DNA of 64,000 nt from Candidatus Endomicrobiellum trichonymphae (GTDB taxonomy: Bacteria; Elusimicrobiota; Endomicrobiia; Endomicrobiales; Endomicrobiaceae). Where the stretch lies: positions 124,001-188,000 of the forward strand of contig NZ_AP017459.1 in NCBI RefSeq assembly GCF_002355835.1, read 5' to 3'. The notes beneath the pieces are model-generated. The model was not told where the DNA came from and searched no databases. It worked only from the letters and a program-made list of their open reading frames with translations. Positions within the stretch are counted from its first letter, which is position 1; every line of letters starts with the position of its first letter. Made by a program: the position numbers and the translations under genes. Below, in pieces: positions 54,234-64,000 of this stretch.

Positions 54234-55418
54234 ATGTCAAAAGGAAAATTTGGGATTCATGGCGGCCAGTATATTACGGAAACTCTTATGAGTGCCGTGA
54301 ACGAACTTGAATCGGCTTATAACAGTTTTAAAAATGACGGGCATTTTAACGAGGAGCTTACTGCTCTGCTCAACGGGTATGCTGGAAGACCTTCGGAGTT
54401 ATATTATGCTAAGAATGTTACCGAAAAACTCGGCGGGGCAAAAATATATTTAAAAAGGGAAGATTTAAATCATACCGGATCGCATAAAATAAACAACGTT
54501 TTGGGGCAGACTCTGCTTGCCAAAAAAATGGGCAAAAAAAGAGTTATAGCGGAAACTGGAGCGGGGCAGCACGGAGTTGCGACTGCGACAGCCGCTGCAC
54601 TGCTTGGCATGGAATGCGAAATTTTTATGGGCGAAGAGGATACCGAAAGACAGGCTTTAAATGTTTTCAGAATGCAGCTGCTTGGCGCAGAAGTTCATCC
54701 TGTAAAAAGCGGCACGAAAACTTTAAAGGATGCCGTAAGCGAAACTATGAGAGAGTGGAGCAAAAGGGTTGATGATACATTTTATGTTTTGGGTTCGGTA
54801 ATGGGACCACATCCATATCCGCAGATTGTGAGGGATTTTCAAAGTGTTATAAGCAAGGAAATAAAAGAACAGTTGATGAAAAGAGAATCTATTCTTCCGT
54901 CCGCTGTTATAGCCTGCGTCGGAGGAGGGTCAAATTCAATAGGCGCTTTTTACAATTTTATAAACGATAATGAAGTCAGGCTTATAGGCTGCGAAGCTGC
55001 TGGCAAAGGCGTTGACACTTTTGAAACCGCTGCTACAATTGCAAAAGGCAGGCTTGGAATATTTCACGGAATGAAATCGTATTTCTGCCAGACGGAAAAA
55101 GGACAAATTGCGCCTGTATATTCGATTTCTGCAGGACTTGATTATCCGGGCATAGGTCCGGAACATGCGTATCTGCACGATACAAAAAGAGCGCAGTATG
55201 TTCCCGTTACCGATGATGAAGCTGTCGGAGCATTTGAATTTTTATCAAAAACCGAAGGAATTATTCCCGCAATAGAATCTGCGCATGCAATGCATTATGC
55301 AATTAAGATTGCCCCTGAAATGAAAAAAGACGAGATAATAGTTGTCTGTATTTCTGGCAGAGGCGATAAAGATGTTGCAATGATTGCCAAATACAAGGGG
55401 GTAAATATTAATGAATAA
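54234..55418 (+). CDS. trpB: Tryptophan synthase beta chain
   Basis: PLP enzyme of 394 residues that condenses indole with serine. [10 protein letters not shown] contains the PLP Lys85, [20 protein letters not shown] the channel region with the catalytic Glu, and [10 protein letters not shown] the phosphate loop. It has the N-terminal layout of the standard TrpB1 form. RBS GGAAGGAG lies upstream. The 3' end overlaps trpA by 8 bases, as expected for subunits of one complex. Confidence 0.97.
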
Positions 55419-56223
55419 TATCCGTTCTTCTACTGCTGCCTCAAAAAGCAGGTGGCTTATCACAGAAATATTTAAAAATGGAAAGGCTCTGATAACATAT
55501 CTTACGGCTGGAGATCCGTCTCTTGATAAAACTGAAGACTACGTTTTGACAATGGCTGAAAATGGATCTGATTTAATAGAAATAGGCATACCTTTTTCGG
55601 ATCCTGTGGCAGAGGGTGAGACGATACAAAATGCAATGACAAGAGCATTGTCAAAAAATATAGATTTAGATGATATTTTTAATGTTGTTGAAAACGTCCG
55701 AAAAAAGTCAAATGTTCCGCTTGTATTTATGACGTATTTAAATCCTTTGTTTTCTTATGGATATGAAAAGTTTTTTAAAAAGTGCGCCAGTACGGGAATA
55801 AACGGCATAATCGTTCCAGATATGCCTTTTGAAGAGCAGGACGAAATCAAAAGTTTTACTGATAAATACGACATAACGATTATTACGCTCATAGCTCCTA
55901 CGTCTAAAGAGAGAATAAGTGTTTTGGCAAAGCAGGCGGAAGGTTTTATATATCTTGTTTCATCGCTTGGCGTTACGGGAGTGAGAAGCAGGATAACCAC
56001 CAATATTGACGCTATAGTCTCTGAAATAAAGAAAGTGACGGATACGCCTGTTGCTGTAGGATTTGGGATTTCTACTCCCGAGCAGGCAAAAAAAGTGACA
56101 AAGTCTGCCGACGGTGTGATAATAGGAAGCGCTGTTGTAAAAATAATTGCAGAGTATAAAGAAAGCGCCGCTTCCAAACTTGCGGAATATGTTTCAGAAA
56201 TCAAGAGAGTTATACAGGACTGA
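55411..56223 (+). CDS. trpA: Tryptophan synthase alpha chain
   Basis: Splits indole-glycerol phosphate and passes indole to TrpB; 270 residues. [24 protein letters not shown] and [10 protein letters not shown] are the usual motifs. Catalytic Glu (E. coli Glu49) is Glu57. The second acidic residue (E. coli Asp60) is Glu68 here, a conservative change. FGISTPEQ and GVIIGSAVV form the phosphate site. Last gene of the operon. Confidence 0.95.
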
Positions 56224-56669
56224 GATTAAAATATGCCGGAAAAATGTTTTTACCCGACTTTCATGGTTTGAAATATCAATAGCTTTAAAGAGAAGAGATG
56301 TTTCCTGCCAAAAGACTATGATAGCTCCTGCCATAGACTTTTTCTTTTGAGGGAAGGAAAAAGCGAAAGTTGTTGTTTTAGGAAAAGACAAGATAGGGTT
56401 GACGTAACAAAAAAGAATTTCAACAGATAAGTTTAGGATTATTTCAGTCGCCGTATTATTCTTGTGATAGGCAGAACTAAAATTCTTACCTCTTGCCATA
56501 TATTTTTGATAAAAGCGGATTTCTTACTTTTGCAGAAATGACACTTTTTTAACTGTTTCTACTATTCCAACAGTTTGTAGAATATTGTTTCAGAAGTTTT
56601 CATTGTCGGACAGCCAAATAGCATACCTTAAATAATATTTCAAGTTAGATTTAGAATAGTGCTATACTA
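56224..56669. other. Spacer between the trp operon and the defence island
   Basis: About 446 bases. A minus-strand frame (56194-56499) crosses the end of trpA but shows no family signal and no RBS, so I do not call it. No strong terminator after trpA is evident. Confidence 0.45.
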
Positions 56670-57911
56670 TCAACAATTTTTTAAATTCATAAAAAGAAAG
56701 TATTGGGGAATTAATTTTTTTAAAAAAGAAGCAAACACTTTATTTGTTATCATAAAGGGTTTAATTTTATAACTAGAATCTACAATTAGATTCTGACTTT
56801 TAAAAAATCTTATATAATCCCCCTTTATATAATCAATTCGTTTTTGAAATTTTTCAGCAGATTTCTTTTCAAAGAAAAATCTTTTCTGTTCCATACTAGC
56901 TTCAAAAATAGAGCCTACTTTTTGTAAGAATTTGCACTCAATAACATAGATATCTCTATTTTTATATCATAATCTCCTAAATCATTAGGATGATTGCCTG
57001 CACTATCTCTAGAATGTAATTCTAACATATTGAAACTGTTTCTTTTTTAAAACGTCAACAATATCTACGACTATTTGTTTTTCATATCTTTTTTTCCACC
57101 TGCTTATTAAATAAAAAAGCAGACATCCATATATTTAATAGATTATGAAGCGTAACCGGAGAAAAAATAATATTGTCATCAATTTCTAATATAGACTTTA
57201 TTTAAAATCTGTTATCTCTTTTTTCTCGCTCCCAAACAAGGAAGAACCTCAAAATTTTTGCCTTCTATTTGTCTTATTTTATCTGTTGAAATGCATAAAA
57301 AATTAAGTATTTTATCAATATTAACTTCATCAATATTTAAGTCTGGAAGATTAATAATATCGTTAATTAATTTTGAAAGTATATTGCTGGCAATTTCATA
57401 GCCGTTTTTAGTATATTCGGTAGGTAATTCAATCATATTACACATTTCTTCAAATTTAATATCAGTATCTTGAAAGAAAGCTTTTTTTGCTTCTTCAATA
57501 AAATTTTTATCGATTTCATCATTTTTGATTGGGTAAATTGCATTAGGATCAGGACGCTGCTTATATTTTTCTAAAAAATTCTTATATTTCGTACTGTTTT
57601 CAGTATTAACACGATAATCTGGTGTTACTTCGATAAAACAATCAAATTCGTTATGGTAAAAAATCAGCATTATTCTGCAGTTCTGATAACCAATGAGCAA
57701 AACACAATAGATAATCAAAATTTTCTTGATTACATTTTATAGTAGTATTTTTTTCTCGTCTTAGACTTAAATTAGTTTCTATTAAGTAAATAAGACCTCT
57801 GGAAACTAATCGTCTAATTTTTTGTTCAGTCTTATACATTCTATTATTCTTAAATATCTCTATAGCAGAAGCTGAATAAAAGCTGAGTGCTTTTATATGC
57901 AAATCAGACAT
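56670..57911 (-). pseudogene. Decayed PD-(D/E)XK-like nuclease gene
   Basis: Read from the complement. Coding-like pieces in different frames: an N-terminal part from 57911 (YKTEQKIRRLVSRGLIYLIE), a long middle piece (57718-57212), EKQIVVDIVDVLKKKQFQYV, then LELHSRDSAGNHPNDLGDYD, and in another frame IYVIECKFLQKVGSIFEASM followed by FQKRIDYIKGDYIRFFKSQN. Asp in GDYD followed by E-C-K gives a plausible PD-(D/E)XK nuclease site. At least four frame breaks are present. Its 5' end overlaps the divergent mod start by about 15 bases, so the true start may be internal. Family name not known to me. Confidence 0.6.
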
Positions 57912-59581
57912 TTCATAACGGATGAAATAATAAACAAATTATCAAAACATTCAAACCTAAAAGAGCAGATAAAAGAATGGCAAGAATTGGGAATGGTAGA
58001 TAATAATTTTAGTTTCTCCGAAAGATCAGAAGCGCATAAATATTTGTCGATAGATACAAAACGTTTCAAAGATTTAGAATTAGATATTTTAGCCTTATTT
58101 GATAATTTAGACGAAGCGTTGGACGGCAGGTTAATACACAGCGAGAACTATCAGGCTCTTAATACTTTGCAGGAAAGATACAAAGAAAAAATACAGTGTA
58201 TTTATATCGACCCGCCTTACAATACAAATTCATCTCCTATAATATATATTAATAATTATAAGGATTCATCATGGCTAACTATTATACATAATAGAATGGA
58301 GTTATCCAGGAAGTTACTAAAAGATAATGGAATAAACATAACAGCTATTGACGATATTGAATTAAGATATTTAACATTTTTGCAAGATAATGTATTCGGT
58401 AAAAATAACTATATAACAACCATTATAACAAAGTGCAATCCTCAAGGAAGAGTCGCTGACAAAATTTCTAAAACATACAGAATTTCATATACTGCACTCA
58501 GGTAAATTGTTCATTAAGAAAAATGACGAAAAAAAGCCATTTCCATTGAAAAGAGGCGGAACAAACTCAAAAAGAGTAGAAAGACCAAATAGATATTATC
58601 CAATACTTGTTAAAGATAATAAAATATATATGATAACAGATGAAGAATATAGCAAAATTTATAATAGAGAAAAACAGCTGTTTAACGACAATTTCGTAGA
58701 AAGTCTGAAAAATAAATATGAAAGTCAGGGGTTTTCTTTTATTTTATCTATAAATCAGAGAGACGAAAAAGTAGTTTGGCAGAGAAAATTCGAAAGAGTA
58801 AAAGAAGAGAAAGAAACTTATATTGTCAAAAATAATATTATTTCTACATCATCCTCTGATGTAGAAATACCAAAAACTCTATGGCAAGACGCTAAATTCT
58901 CAAACCCCCAATATGGAAGTTCATATCTAAAAGATATTTTAGGACACAATAAGTTCGAAACTCCTAAAAGTATAAATACAATAAAGCAATTTCTTTCAAT
59001 GTTTGAGTCTACTGGAATTTATTTAGGGAACTACCGCAGAGGCTATAATAAGTGCAAATAAAGAGGATGATGGTGATAGAAAATATATCATTATTGAATT
59101 AGGAGCGCATATTGATACTATTATTATTCCAAGAATAAAAAAAATTATTTTTTCTGATTGTTGGAAAAATGGAATAAGTCAAAATGGGAAAGGAGTTTCT
59201 CAATTTTTCAAGTATTATTCTTTAGAACAATACGAAAATACTTTAAGAAATATGAAGTATTCAGAAAATATTCCATCTACTCTATGGGATACCAAAAACC
59301 CATTTGAAACTTATACTTTTAAAGCAGACCAAAAATTTGCCGATGTATTAAGCATAGAAAGCGAAATTTTGGAAGTTGATTTTAACAAATTATACAAAGA
59401 TATAGATTTTGCGGAAACAATATCTAATCTTAAGGGATTACCTATAAAGAGAATAACTAAAACAGGCGTATTATTAGACGGCGAAAACAAAGAGATGAAA
59501 ACTAATTATAAAGATATGGCGAATTCTGAAAAGATTGAATTTATAAGACTGTTAAAACCCTTACTTTGGTGGGGCGAATAA
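57897..59581 (+). pseudogene. mod: Type III restriction-modification DNA methyltransferase (Mod), broken
   Basis: Three consecutive frames make one Mod protein, an adenine-N6 methyltransferase that also gives a type III system its sequence specificity. Frame 1 (57897 to about 58470) has the catalytic DPPYNT (Asp105) and ends in QGRVADKISKT. Frame 2 continues EFHILHSGKLFIKKNDEKKP through PFPLKRGGTNSKRVERPNRY to FETPKSINTIKQFLSM. Frame 3 resumes at GTTAEAIISANKED, then IELGAHIDTIIIPRIKKI, ending LLWWGE. The second break falls in the S-adenosylmethionine motif (expected FxGSGTT), which is lost. The order DPPY before FxGxG is the beta class. Confidence 0.88.
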
Positions 59582-59605
59582 CAGATATAGGAGATATAAA
59601 GAACA

Positions 59606-61793
59606 ATGATTAGTAGAATAAATAAGATAAAAGATTTTGGGGGTTTTAAAAACTTTGAAAATAATGGCGAAGTTCCAGAGTTTAAGAAATTCAATCTTAT
59701 TTATGGCTGGAATTATTCAGGCAAAACTATGCTTTCAAGAGTGTTTAGATGTTTAGAAAAGAGCGAAAAGCACCGTGATTACGCAGACGCAAAATTTGAA
59801 CTCGAAATATCAGGGAAGAAATATGACAATAATTTTTCATCGCCGAAACCCAATATCCGCGTTTTCAATTCCGATTTCATGAAGGAAAATCTAAAGTGGG
59901 ATATAGATGATATTATTGAACCCATAATACTTATGCTAGGCGAAGAAAACATTAAACTGCAAACAGAGTTAAGAAAAAAAGAAGAAACATTAATAAAAAT
60001 CCGCGAAGAAAATGGAAGAAACAAAAAAGACATAGATAAGGCAGCTACATATAAAGCAAAAGAAATTAAAAGTATACTAAGTTTAAGCAATTTTGACAAG
60101 AAATATTTGGAAAAAATTATTGAAAAGGTAAAAAACGATACTTCAGGATATATTTTAAAAACTGATTTTGATAAATATAAAACGCGAGCGCTGTCAACAG
60201 AACAAAAACCGATTATTGAGAATATAACATTTAATATTAAAGATCTGGAAATACTAAGAGAAAAATCTGAAGAAAAATTATACCGGCAAATATCTTCTAA
60301 TAAAATTGAAGAATTACTTAAAGATCCACAAATTAACAGTTGGGTAGAAACAGGCAAAAATCTGCATGAGGTAAAACAGTTTGTGAATTTTGCGGAAACC
60401 CGCTGCCAATAGATCTGCTGCCTAAATTAAATGAACACTTTTCTAGAGATTATGAGTTATTAAAAAATGATATTGAAACACTGCTGGAAGAATTAAATAT
60501 CTTTGAAATAAAATTAAATTCTTTGCCTGAGGAAATTGCTTTTTATACAGATATTCAACCAGATTTTAAAAAAGCCAAACCTATTCTTGAAAAAGAAATT
60601 CATAATTTTAACGATGCTGTAGAGATTTAAAAACAAAGCAAGAAAAACCTTTTGATAAATTAGAAGTTACTCGATTTGTAAATAACACAAAAGAATTAGA
60701 AAAAGCTTTAGCAGACTTCAACGCTATCATAAGAAAAAATAATGATAGAACAGATAATTTTGAGAGAGAGAAAAATGCCGCAATTGCAAAATTAAAAGAG
60801 CATTTTGCAGCAGAGTTTGAAAAGATAGAAAAGTATTCTGAAAGGCAAATGCTATTAGAAAGTGAACGAACAAAAATTGAGAAAGATAAAGAAGAAATCG
60901 GCAAAATAAAAGCACAGTTAGATGAAAGTGGTAAAGGCGCTGAAAAAGTAAATGAATACTTAAAAATATTTTTTGAAAAAGACAATATTAAGATTGAACC
61001 AACAGAGGATAAAAAGTTTAAGCTGGTTCGCGGAACGGAAATAGCAAAGAATTTAAGTGAAGGAGAGAAAACAGCAATTTCATTCGCCTATTTTGCGGCG
61101 AAACTTGAAGAACAAAATAACAATATAGCTGATACAATAGTTTATATTGACGATCCGGTTTCAAGTTTGGATTCAAATCATTTGTTCAATATTTATTCTT
61201 TTATAAGAGATATATTTTATGAGTACAAAAATAAAAAACATATTTGCAAATGCAAGCAGTTATTTATTTCAACACATAATATTGAATTTTATAATTTATT
61301 TTGCGATTGGTCTGAAAAGCAAGGGTATTTAATTAAAAGAATAAAAAAATCACATTGTGACGAATCTATATTAACTAAAAGCGAGGATGTGATTGAGAAA
61401 TATAAGTCTGAATATGTTTATTTATTCTCATTGATAAATAAATTTAATAACGATCCCGAGCCAAAAGACACTTTTGAACATCTATATTATTTACCTAATG
61501 TCTTAAGGAGGTTTGTTGAAACATATTTGAGTTTTAAATATTTGTCCCGTAAAAGTATTGAGGAGAACATTCATGATTTGATTTCTAATCGGGTTGATTG
61601 TGAAAGAGCAAGAAAATTTATGCATTATCACAGTCATAGTTTGACGATCAATAACTTAATAGGATTCCCGGATTTAGCCGAAAGTACTGATATAATAAAA
61701 GCCGTGAAAAAAGATGATTCAACGCACTATAATTCATTAGTTAAAGCAGTAAATAATATAACTAGAGAAAAAAATAATGAAAATCACTCTTGA
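59606..61793 (+). pseudogene. AAA_13 ATPase resembling RloC/PrrC anticodon nucleases, broken
   Basis: ABC-type ATPase head split around long coils. Frame 1 (59606-60380): Walker A YGWNYSGKTMLSR at about residues 33-45, then coils. Frame 2 (60382-60625): CEFCGNPLPIDLLPKLNEHF, a C-x2-C centre like the zinc hook of RloC. Frame 3 (60627-61793): coiled coil, signature NLSEGEKTAISFAYF, Walker B TIVYIDDPVSSLDSNHLF, then a C-terminal domain with LRRFVETYLSFKYL (Arg-x3-Glu) and a His cluster at 61620-61640, a spacing near the Arg-Glu-His site of PrrC. Two frameshifts interrupt it. It lies 24 bases after mod and overlaps res by 17 bases. Confidence 0.75.
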
Positions 61794-64000
61794 AAAGATT
61801 TTAGAACAGATAGATTATGCCCAGTTGAACAATTGGCAGCTTCCTAGTATTTCTTGTTTTTCTGAAAATAAAAATTTAGAGGGGTTTCCATATCAAAAAC
61901 AAGCGCTTAAAAATATAACAAAAGCGCTTTATTTGTCTTTTAAAACTTTTCAAAACGGCAATGCAAGTCCCGATAAACAAACTCTCCATACAAAATCGGA
62001 CTTAAAGACAAAGCCTTTGCTGTACGTAAATTTACAAACAATAAAGATAAAAGCATAGGCAATACAAGCGGCAGATTTAAGTTTTTTCAAAATTATTCAA
62101 AAGATTATAAAGTTTTAGGGGGAGGAACTGAAGAATATGTCGCAGATGCCGCTTTTTTAAACAGGGCTTGTTTTTGGATGTCGACAGGTTCGGGGAAAAG
62201 TATTGTTTTGATAAAAACTATTGAACTTTTAGATTATTTACAGAAACAAAAACTTATCCCGAGAAAAGAAATAATGCTGCTTCCAAGAGAAGACTTGATA
62301 AAACAGTTTAAAAGAGAAATAGAAGAATTCAACAAAAGCAGAGAAAGAAAAATTGAACTTATAAATCTCATAAACTATGAGGATGATAAACAAGGCTTTA
62401 ATTACGACCATTCCATAAAGGTTTATTATAGAAGCGATTTGTTAAGAGATGAGCGCAAAGAAAGTATTTTAGACTACAGAAATTACGATAACGAAGGAAA
62501 CTGGTATATATTTCTAGATGAAGCGCATCGCGGAGAAAAAGAAAATTCTTCAGCGCAAAATTATGTTTCTGTTTTATCAAGAAACGGGTTTTTATTTAAT
62601 TTCTCTGCAACTTTTACGGAGAATATAGATTACTCGACAACTTGTTTTAATTTTAATCTTGAAAAATTTATCTCAGAAGGCTACGGAAAAAACTTATATT
62701 TAAGTCATGCTTGTTTTACTTTTGCAGCCGAAAAAAACGAATTAAGCGAGATAGAAAAACAGCAACAAGTCTTAAAATCTTTACTAGCTTTTACTTTAAT
62801 CAAGAAATCAAAAAAACAAGGATATTATCACGATCCTCTGCTTATAACTCTAGTAAATTCAATAAATACAGCCGACTCTGACTTACTTTTATTTTTTAAG
62901 AAGATAGAAGAGATAGCAACCGACAGTATCGCATATCAAATTTTTGATAAAGCAAAAGACGAGTTTGAACAAGAATTATCAGACAACAAAAAATATATAT
63001 TTGGGCAAGAAAAATTTTCTTTTGATAAAGAATTATTTGACAAAATTATTCTTAAGGATTTGTTAGAAAATATTTTTAATACTAAAAAGCCCGGCAAAAT
63101 TGAACTTTTAGAAGGCGAAAAGGAGAAAGAAATAGTATTAAAATTAGAAACAACAGATAAACCGTTTGCGCTCATTAAAATAGGCGATGCTAAGAAATTT
63201 CAAAGGGAAAAATTAGGCGGTAATTATCAATATGTAACTTCTCCTGAAAAAAAGACTGTATTTCAAGGGATAAATGATAATGAGGATATAAATCTTTTGC
63301 TTGGAAGCCGTAGTTTTTATGAGGGCTGGGACAGTAATAGACCGAATGTAATAAATATGATAAATATCGGCGGAAAAGAGGCTAAAAAGTTTGTTTTACA
63401 AAGCATAGGACGAGGCGTTAGAATAGAGCCTGTGAAAGGCAAAAGAAAGAGATTACCTGAAAATGATACAAATAAAAATAGACTTTTAGAAACGCTTTTT
63501 ATTTTTGCAACCGATAAGAATTCTATAGCCAGCATTTTTGAAACAATTGAAGAACAGAAAACAAAAGACGAAGAGTTAAAAGGTATTTTTAAAAACACTC
63601 CTCATTATGAGGAAGAAGCGCCAAGAAATAATTTTGCAAAGTTTAATATTTCAGAGCAAACAAAAGAAAACATTAGAGAATATATTAAAGAATTCAATAA
63701 AAACCTTTTATTATTATCTTTAGAAAATCTCAATCTTTTACTTGAGAAAATTGACGACGATAATTTTTTTCAAATAAAAGAGGATAATGTTTATAATGAT
63801 ATGGATTTTTTGTTTAACAAATTGATTTCTCATACTGCTGTAAAAAATAAAAAATTTTCTGGACTTAAAAAACTTGAGGACGAAATAATACATTTTAAGC
63901 ATATAAAAATATCTAATTTAGAAACTGAAAATGTTGAATTGTTAAACTCAGAAATTGAAGATGTAAAAATAGGCAAAAAGAAAGAGGCTGAATTTAGAGA
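61777..64000 (+). pseudogene. res: Type III restriction subunit (Res), frameshifted, runs off the window
   Basis: ATP-dependent translocase and endonuclease partner of Mod. Frame 1 (61777 to about 61995) reads MKITLEKILEQIDYAQLNNW and FPYQKQALKNITKAL. The protein then continues one frame away: YKIGLKDKAFAVRK, FLNRACFWMSTGSGKSIVLI (Walker A), WYIFLDEAHRGEKE (DEAH box, about 62515-62530), FNFSATFTENIDY, SRSFYEGWDSNRPNVINM and LQSIGRGVRIEP (motif VI). From the break to the window end about 670 codons are open, with no stop found by eye. The nuclease domain would lie beyond 64000. Confidence 0.85.

What the first reader, a model, noticed from the sequence alone, without database searches (positions are those of the whole stretch)
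56880..57050. Nuclease-like signature in an unassigned minus-strand pseudogene beside a type III system
Read in two frames, LELHSRDSAGNHPNDLGDYD is followed by IYVIECKFLQKVG. The Asp and E-x-K spacing fits PD-(D/E)XK nucleases. A third nuclease-type component next to mod, ATPase and res may define a larger composite defence locus that I do not recognise.
Basis: partly seen in the sequence, partly recalled or inferred. Interest (0 to 1): 0.5.

Follow-up and report, generated by a model that had tools for sequence, protein, structure and literature searches.

The report
Wreck of an Upx-like antiphage nuclease gene
The nuclease signature is real, but it is the tail end of a broken, apparently imported gene related to the known one-gene antiphage protein Upx, which happens to sit beside a decaying restriction system rather than forming a new composite defence system with it.

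Summary
On the minus strand, about 57920-56712, six fragments in changing frames match, in order, positions 775-1178 of a 1197-position profile built only from homologues elsewhere (i-E down to 5.8e-20; best of 20 randomised windows 0.0026). The family is Upx-like: eight intact homologues are single proteins of 1167-1279 aa. The only PDB sequence match is 9wuf, 'Cryo-EM structure of Upx', also the top fold match of a whole homologue (Foldseek E 4.5e-18; next 0.014). The composite-system idea is not supported: 0 of 16 homologous loci gave a mod or res match; 0 of 40 other congeneric genomes gave the gene a match; the nearest congener examined has long open mod and res frames without it. The window copy lacks about its first two thirds, changes frame five times, and groups with Bacillota copies: a dead, probably laterally acquired relic. 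A looser tie to defence genes (4 of 10 loci; hand-picked scan, no control) remains a lead.

The parts
56712..57920 (-). Remnant of an upx-like gene: profile positions 775-1178 of 1197 (upper end by BLASTP to the Christensenella homologue), in six fragments with five frame changes; about the first two thirds are missing
56963..57025 (-). Fragment carrying HPNDLGDYD, the Asp part of the PD-(D/E)XK site
56712..56963 (-). C-terminal fragment carrying the ExK part (IECK) and the end of the nuclease domain; 44% identical over 86 columns to the Christensenella homologue
57218..57658 (-). Largest fragment (profile 831-985)
57876..59578 (+). Broken mod-like DNA methyltransferase; DNA matching the congener's mod begins at 57916, about 300 codons into the congener's 819-codon frame
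59600..61790 (+). AAA_13 ATPase, in three open stretches
61762..63998 (+). res-like helicase subunit, in two open stretches, reaching the end of the window
55411..56223 (+). trpA (named from recall), the gene upstream; DNA matching a congener without the island (G024) continues in pieces to 56543

Best explanation
The finding is the degraded 3' third of a gene for an Upx-like protein, a large single-gene antiphage nuclease. Intact relatives are about 1,200 residues long: a long N-terminal and middle part whose job is unknown here (probably sensing or positioning on phage nucleic acid; inferred) and a C-terminal PD-(D/E)XK domain that would cut nucleic acid with the conserved D and ExK residues (predicted fold and residues shown; activity inferred). 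In this genome the gene probably came in by lateral transfer with low-GC DNA beside the trp operon (inferred from the tree, its absence from other congeneric genomes searched, and base composition). It has lost its 5' two thirds and changes frame five times, so it very probably makes no functional protein. Its neighbours mod, AAA_13 and res are a separate system that shares the island.
For: Collinear profile match across six fragments. Eight intact homologues of 1167-1279 aa with HPx[D/W]LGDYD...ExK. PADLOC Upx profile matches 3 of 9 homologues scanned at E up to 0.01 (L024 E 1.4e-7; L025 0.005; L026 scanned as L014, 0.0083), at similar positions in protein and profile. Profile-profile match to Upx members found with that model: probability 98.8, E 8.3e-17, 518 columns. 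PDB sequence search at E up to 1: only 9wuf, E 1.7e-9 with a profile free of Upx-model hits, 9.4e-5 with the C-terminal homologue profile. Fold: C-terminal model mean pLDDT 81.5, top match 9wuf, Z 14.1 over 265 residues; full-length homologue, Foldseek E 4.5e-18 and Z 19.2 over 750 residues to 9wuf, next 0.014 and Z 7.0. Lateral origin: groups with Christensenella and Lachnospiraceae copies (97/97), not with the Elusimicrobia copy; no match in 40 other congeneric genomes; GC 27% against 39% in the trp genes.
Against: The window fragments themselves match no PADLOC or NCBIfam model and only sub-threshold unrelated Pfam models, so the assignment runs through homologues. 6 of 9 homologues scanned are missed by the PADLOC Upx model; the Virgibacillus one instead has a short weak match to PDC-S02 (E 5.8e-4, 74 residues), and the PDC-S12 and E2 matches of L021 and L024 fall on their N-terminal SEC-C motif. 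The 12 rows of this family separate from the three Upx-model rows with 100/99 support: a divergent clade. The full-length model is moderate (mean pLDDT 69.7) and its rmsd to 9wuf is 25.7 over 750 residues, so N-terminal similarity is less certain than C-terminal; the homologue-Upx profile match also starts only at position 609. No activity was tested.
Confidence: 0.93

Rival explanations
1. The gene is a real third component of a composite type III locus (mod - ATPase - res - nuclease), now decayed.
For: It lies head to head with mod in the same low-GC stretch. Some homologues lie near restriction or defence genes: 4 of 10 related loci.
Against: 0 of 16 homologous loci gave a match to this mod or res (single-sequence queries; the five Upx-model loci have flanks of about 1.5 kb at most, L020 is a 6.3 kb contig). 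G142 has long open mod and res frames at the same place without it, and gave no match elsewhere, though that genome is only 81% complete. Homologues are self-contained Upx-like proteins.
Confidence: 0.04
2. It is a PD-(D/E)XK nuclease of another family (for example a type II enzyme or a NERD-like protein) that only shares the motif with Upx.
For: The C-terminal domain alone also resembles other nucleases such as Can2, Card1 and FokI (Z 8 to 9.4).
Against: Homology to Upx extends beyond the motif: 518 profile columns and 750 aligned residues, with 9wuf far ahead of the next match.
Confidence: 0.03
3. Sequencing or assembly errors make an intact gene look broken.
For: Five frame changes in 1.2 kb could in principle be read errors in AT-rich DNA.
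Against: The trp genes beside it are open in the same assembly. No match to the first 774 profile positions was found anywhere in the own genome, which read errors would not explain.
Confidence: 0.02

Closest known systems
Upx (PADLOC PDLC02221; PDB 9wuf 'Cryo-EM structure of Upx'; first described by Gao et al. 2020, recalled; the citation seen in PMC10855318)
   Same: Homologues have similar size, a C-terminal PD-(D/E)XK domain at similar positions, and match by profile (second half) and by predicted fold.
   Different: Divergent clade that the PADLOC model missed in 6 of 9 proteins scanned; LGDYD instead of the LGDVD/LGDID of three of the Upx-model hits aligned; two members carry an N-terminal SEC-C motif; the window copy is truncated and frameshifted.
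Effector nucleases such as Can2 and Card1
   Same: Fold of the C-terminal domain (Z 8.1-9.4). That these are PD-(D/E)XK enzymes is recalled.
   Different: Pfam scans of 8 homologues showed no CARF-type sensor domain.
Type III restriction-modification (mod/res)
   Same: Physical neighbour in this window.
   Different: Not homologous, absent from the same site of G142 beside mod and res, and not seen at other upx-like loci.

Membership tests
Upx | C-terminal PD-(D/E)XK nuclease domain with conserved D and ExK | tested here: met
   Residues present in the window fragments and invariant in 14 aligned rows; fold predicted for a homologue's domain
Upx | Sequence homology to known Upx beyond the nuclease domain | tested here: met
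   Homologue profile against Upx-model hits: 518 columns, E 8.3e-17; 9wuf the only PDB match at E up to 1
Upx | Match of the window fragments themselves to the PADLOC Upx model | tested here: not met
   0 families at E up to 1 for the X-joined fragments; 3 of 9 homologues match
Upx | Overall fold like 9wuf | tested here: met
   For the intact homologue L018 only: Foldseek E 4.5e-18, Z 19.2 over 750 residues, rmsd 25.7; model of moderate confidence
Upx | Single open reading frame of about 1,200-1,270 codons | tested here: not met
   Met by 8 intact homologues; not by the window copy, which starts at profile position 775 and has five frame changes
Upx | Antiphage activity | not testable with these tools
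   Computation only
Component of a composite type III locus | Recurrent linkage of homologues to mod/res | tested here: not met
   0 of 16 loci with a mod or res match at E 1e-3, single-sequence queries, flanks short at five or more of them

The most novel reading that the evidence does not exclude
The place beside mod in these islands may be a slot in which unrelated stand-alone nuclease-like proteins are exchanged: an upx-like gene in the window, and a 516-residue SEC-C protein with a nuclease-like stretch (my reading by eye, untested) in the nearest congener examined. Together with SEC-C motifs fused to two upx-like proteins, this would point to a divergent, zinc-motif-linked branch of Upx that a standard defence-gene model mostly misses and that travels with restriction islands.
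Probability: 0.15. Interest if true: 0.4.

Novelty: new member of a known kind. Interest (0 to 1): 0.2.

Why it matters
It shows that a motif read by eye in broken frames was a true nuclease relic, and it points to a branch of Upx that the PADLOC model missed in 6 of 9 proteins scanned. For this genome it adds one more dead, apparently laterally acquired defence gene to a symbiont whose restriction systems are reported to be abundant and implicated in genome rearrangement (passage seen in PMC11257099; the organism is a recalled identification). The window copy itself is unlikely to do anything.

Tried and rejected
Direct family scans of the fragments gave nothing useful (Pfam only sub-threshold unrelated models; NCBIfam and PADLOC none). 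Searches in viral contigs and phage records found no relatives; plasmids gave only Lactococcus pFI430 and a weak Deinococcus match. The Upx model searched in the genomes of seven homologue loci found nothing, although the L024 protein itself scores 1.4e-7; I take this to be the first filter of that search. A draw of 294 genomes of the phylum with the C-terminal part of the G056 protein found only G056 itself and missed the window copy, so misses in such searches are not proof of absence. A paper on the Upx structure was sought in the held library and not found (other Upx searches); Gao et al. 2020 was not read, only its citation seen. Two papers that may discuss these relics, Izawa et al. 2016 and Zheng et al. 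2016, are not held, so I cannot say whether this pseudogene was annotated there. Repeats around the junctions showed nothing convincing.

Considered and rejected: composite type III locus; another nuclease family; assembly error (see rivals).

Full report
Observation. To test whether this exceeds chance, I built a profile from ten homologous proteins, none of them from the window, and searched all stop-to-stop stretches of 18 residues or more in six frames of the window. Six minus-strand stretches match in order, from profile position 775 to 1178 of 1197, with i-E values from 8.2e-5 to 5.8e-20; their aligned parts follow one another almost without gap from 57833 to 56712. A seventh stretch (57264-57205) is at noise level (0.32), and nothing else in the window reached E 1. 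Of twenty Markov-randomised windows five gave any hit, the best i-E 0.0026. BLASTP to the Christensenella protein carries the first fragment up to about 57920.

How the family was found. Direct scans gave nothing useful. A search of 59 genomes, own included, with the X-joined fragments returned one hit besides the own genome, G056, in an open frame of 1282 codons. Contig length and reading frames agree with L026, Elusimicrobia bacterium UBA5214. A plasmid search gave a second member on Lactococcus pFI430. An alignment of the three was used for the genome-contig scan, which confirmed 10 loci, L017-L026, out of 383 pattern matches. Eight have an intact frame of 1167-1279 codons; L017 is split over two frames and L023 is cut by the contig end. 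In the 10-row C-terminal alignment H-P, L-G-D-Y-D and E-x-K are invariant; with the pFI430 row and three Upx-model hits added, L-G-D-x-D, E and K stay invariant.

What the family is. PADLOC's Upx model matches 3 of 9 homologues scanned: L024 (E 1.4e-7), L025 (0.005) and the G056/L026 protein (0.0083); the other six do not match it, and L018 has a short weak match to another model, PDC-S02. With that model, 5 of 398 genomes of the phylum around G297 gave hits, the best at E 6.8e-174 over profile positions 38-1252 of 1271. Profile against profile, the homologues and these hits align over 518 columns in their second halves, probability 98.8, E 8.3e-17; a three-row subset gives E 1.1e-13. Among 177,635 distinct PDB sequences the only match at E up to 1 is 9wuf_A: E 1.7e-9 with the homologue profile, 9.4e-5 with the C-terminal homologue profile, and 2e-26 with a profile that includes Upx-model hits. 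The PDB title is 'Cryo-EM structure of Upx'.

Fold. The C-terminal 303 residues of the Christensenella homologue were modelled at mean pLDDT 81.5. The best PDB match is 9wuf (Foldseek E 3.2e-7; Z 14.1, 265 residues, rmsd 5.9), followed at Z 8-10 by proteins that include Can2, Card1, Cdn1 and FokI. The D of LGDYD and the ExK lie on neighbouring strands of the model, as known PD-(D/E)XK cores have them (recalled). The whole Virgibacillus homologue was modelled less well (mean pLDDT 69.7), yet 9wuf is again first, with Foldseek E 4.5e-18 against 0.014 for the next, and Z 19.2 over 750 residues against 7.0; the rmsd of 25.7 means that domain placement is not reliable.

State of the window copy. 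A profile search of the whole own genome matched only this remnant, at profile positions 831-1177; no match to the N-terminal part was found. The remnant begins within a few bases of the point (57916) where DNA matching the congener's mod begins. It is most similar to the Christensenella protein (44% over 86 columns for the last fragment), and in a 15-row tree it groups with Christensenella and Lachnospiraceae (97/97), apart from the Elusimicrobia copy. No match was found in the 40 other congeneric genomes searched, of which 13 are at least 90% complete and at most 5% contaminated. The GC content is 27% in 56244-57914 and 29% in 57915-64000, against 39% in the trp genes. This fits lateral arrival and decay (inference).

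The type III neighbour. Pfam identifies a DNA methylase and AAA_13 in the window, and the G142 proteins match mod, AAA_13 and res pieces. In the congener G142, whose trpA is 95% identical, the order after trpA is: a 516-residue SEC-C protein, mod (819 codons), AAA_13 (an open frame of 575 codons that lacks the first 163 positions of the Pfam model, so perhaps broken too), res (924 codons). DNA matches between the two genomes stop at window 56243, resume at 57916-58218, and again from 59204 on. G024 shows no mod or res frame beside trpA in the stretch fetched, and its DNA matches the window in pieces to 56543. G142 shows no upx-like match, but is only 81% complete. With the G142 mod, AAA_13 and res as single-sequence queries against 16 homologous loci (L016-L026, L028-L032), there was no mod or res match and one weak AAA_13 match at L019 (E 2.1e-4); five of these loci carry at most about 1.5 kb of flank and L020 is a short contig. 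The composite-locus idea is therefore not supported, though distant relatives could be missed.

Neighbourhoods. Among the 10 loci, four have a recognised defence gene nearby: Avs4 at L019, a PDC-S11-like gene at L024, a type IIG enzyme at L025 and a type I HsdR at L026. The Upx-model locus L028 has a PDC-M55C-like neighbour. Neighbours were hand-picked for these scans; those tried at L022 (one) and L023 (three) gave no PADLOC match, and those of L017, L018, L020 and L021 were judged only from the starts of their reading frames. There was no control set, so this is a lead and not a demonstrated linkage.

Organism. G056 is of the same phylum and agrees with an Elusimicrobia record; size and gene decay fit 'Candidatus Endomicrobium trichonymphae', a recalled identification. 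Of papers, I saw passages of PMC8809381, PMC7608387, PMC11257099, PMC10855318 and PMC12629846 and search listings only for the rest. [quoted passage not shown] PMC10855318 lists Upx under nucleic acid degradation, citing Gao et al. 2020.

Mechanism. Shown: homology of the family to Upx, predicted nuclease fold and conserved catalytic-type residues in homologues, and a truncated and frameshifted window copy. Inferred: intact members cut nucleic acid during phage infection; the long N-terminal part controls that cut; the window copy is dead. Verdict: an ordinary defence relic of a known kind, from a branch that a standard model mostly misses.

Noticed in passing
L053:2233-3783 (congener G142): At the place where the window has the upx-like remnant, the congener has an unrelated 516-residue protein with a C-terminal SEC-C motif; by eye its N-terminal part looks nuclease-like (untested).
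   Followed up: partly
L021:7826 and L024:4003 onward, first 22 residues of the upx-like proteins: Two upx-like proteins start with a SEC-C motif (Pfam PF02810, E 9.7e-10 and 6.1e-10).
   Followed up: no
window 58219-59203: The middle of mod does not align with the congener's DNA while both sides do, as if the target-recognition part had been swapped.
   Followed up: no
window 59600-61790: An AAA_13 ATPase lies between mod and res, in three stretches; AAA_13 also holds the PrrC/RloC anticodon nucleases (recalled), so a tRNA-cutting partner is worth checking.
   Followed up: no
L026:2977-4671: A 564-residue protein without Pfam match or PADLOC match sits between an apparent hsdS (by eye) and hsdR.
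   Followed up: partly
L014:9679-11688: HerA-like ATPase convergent with the upx-like gene, with weak nuclease-like matches in its C-terminal part.
   Followed up: no
L016:10546-13224 (Lactococcus plasmid pFI430) and L017:8054-11549: Both Lactococcus copies also look damaged: the pFI430 protein lacks its N-terminal part just behind IS981, and the L. garvieae copy is split in two frames.
   Followed up: no
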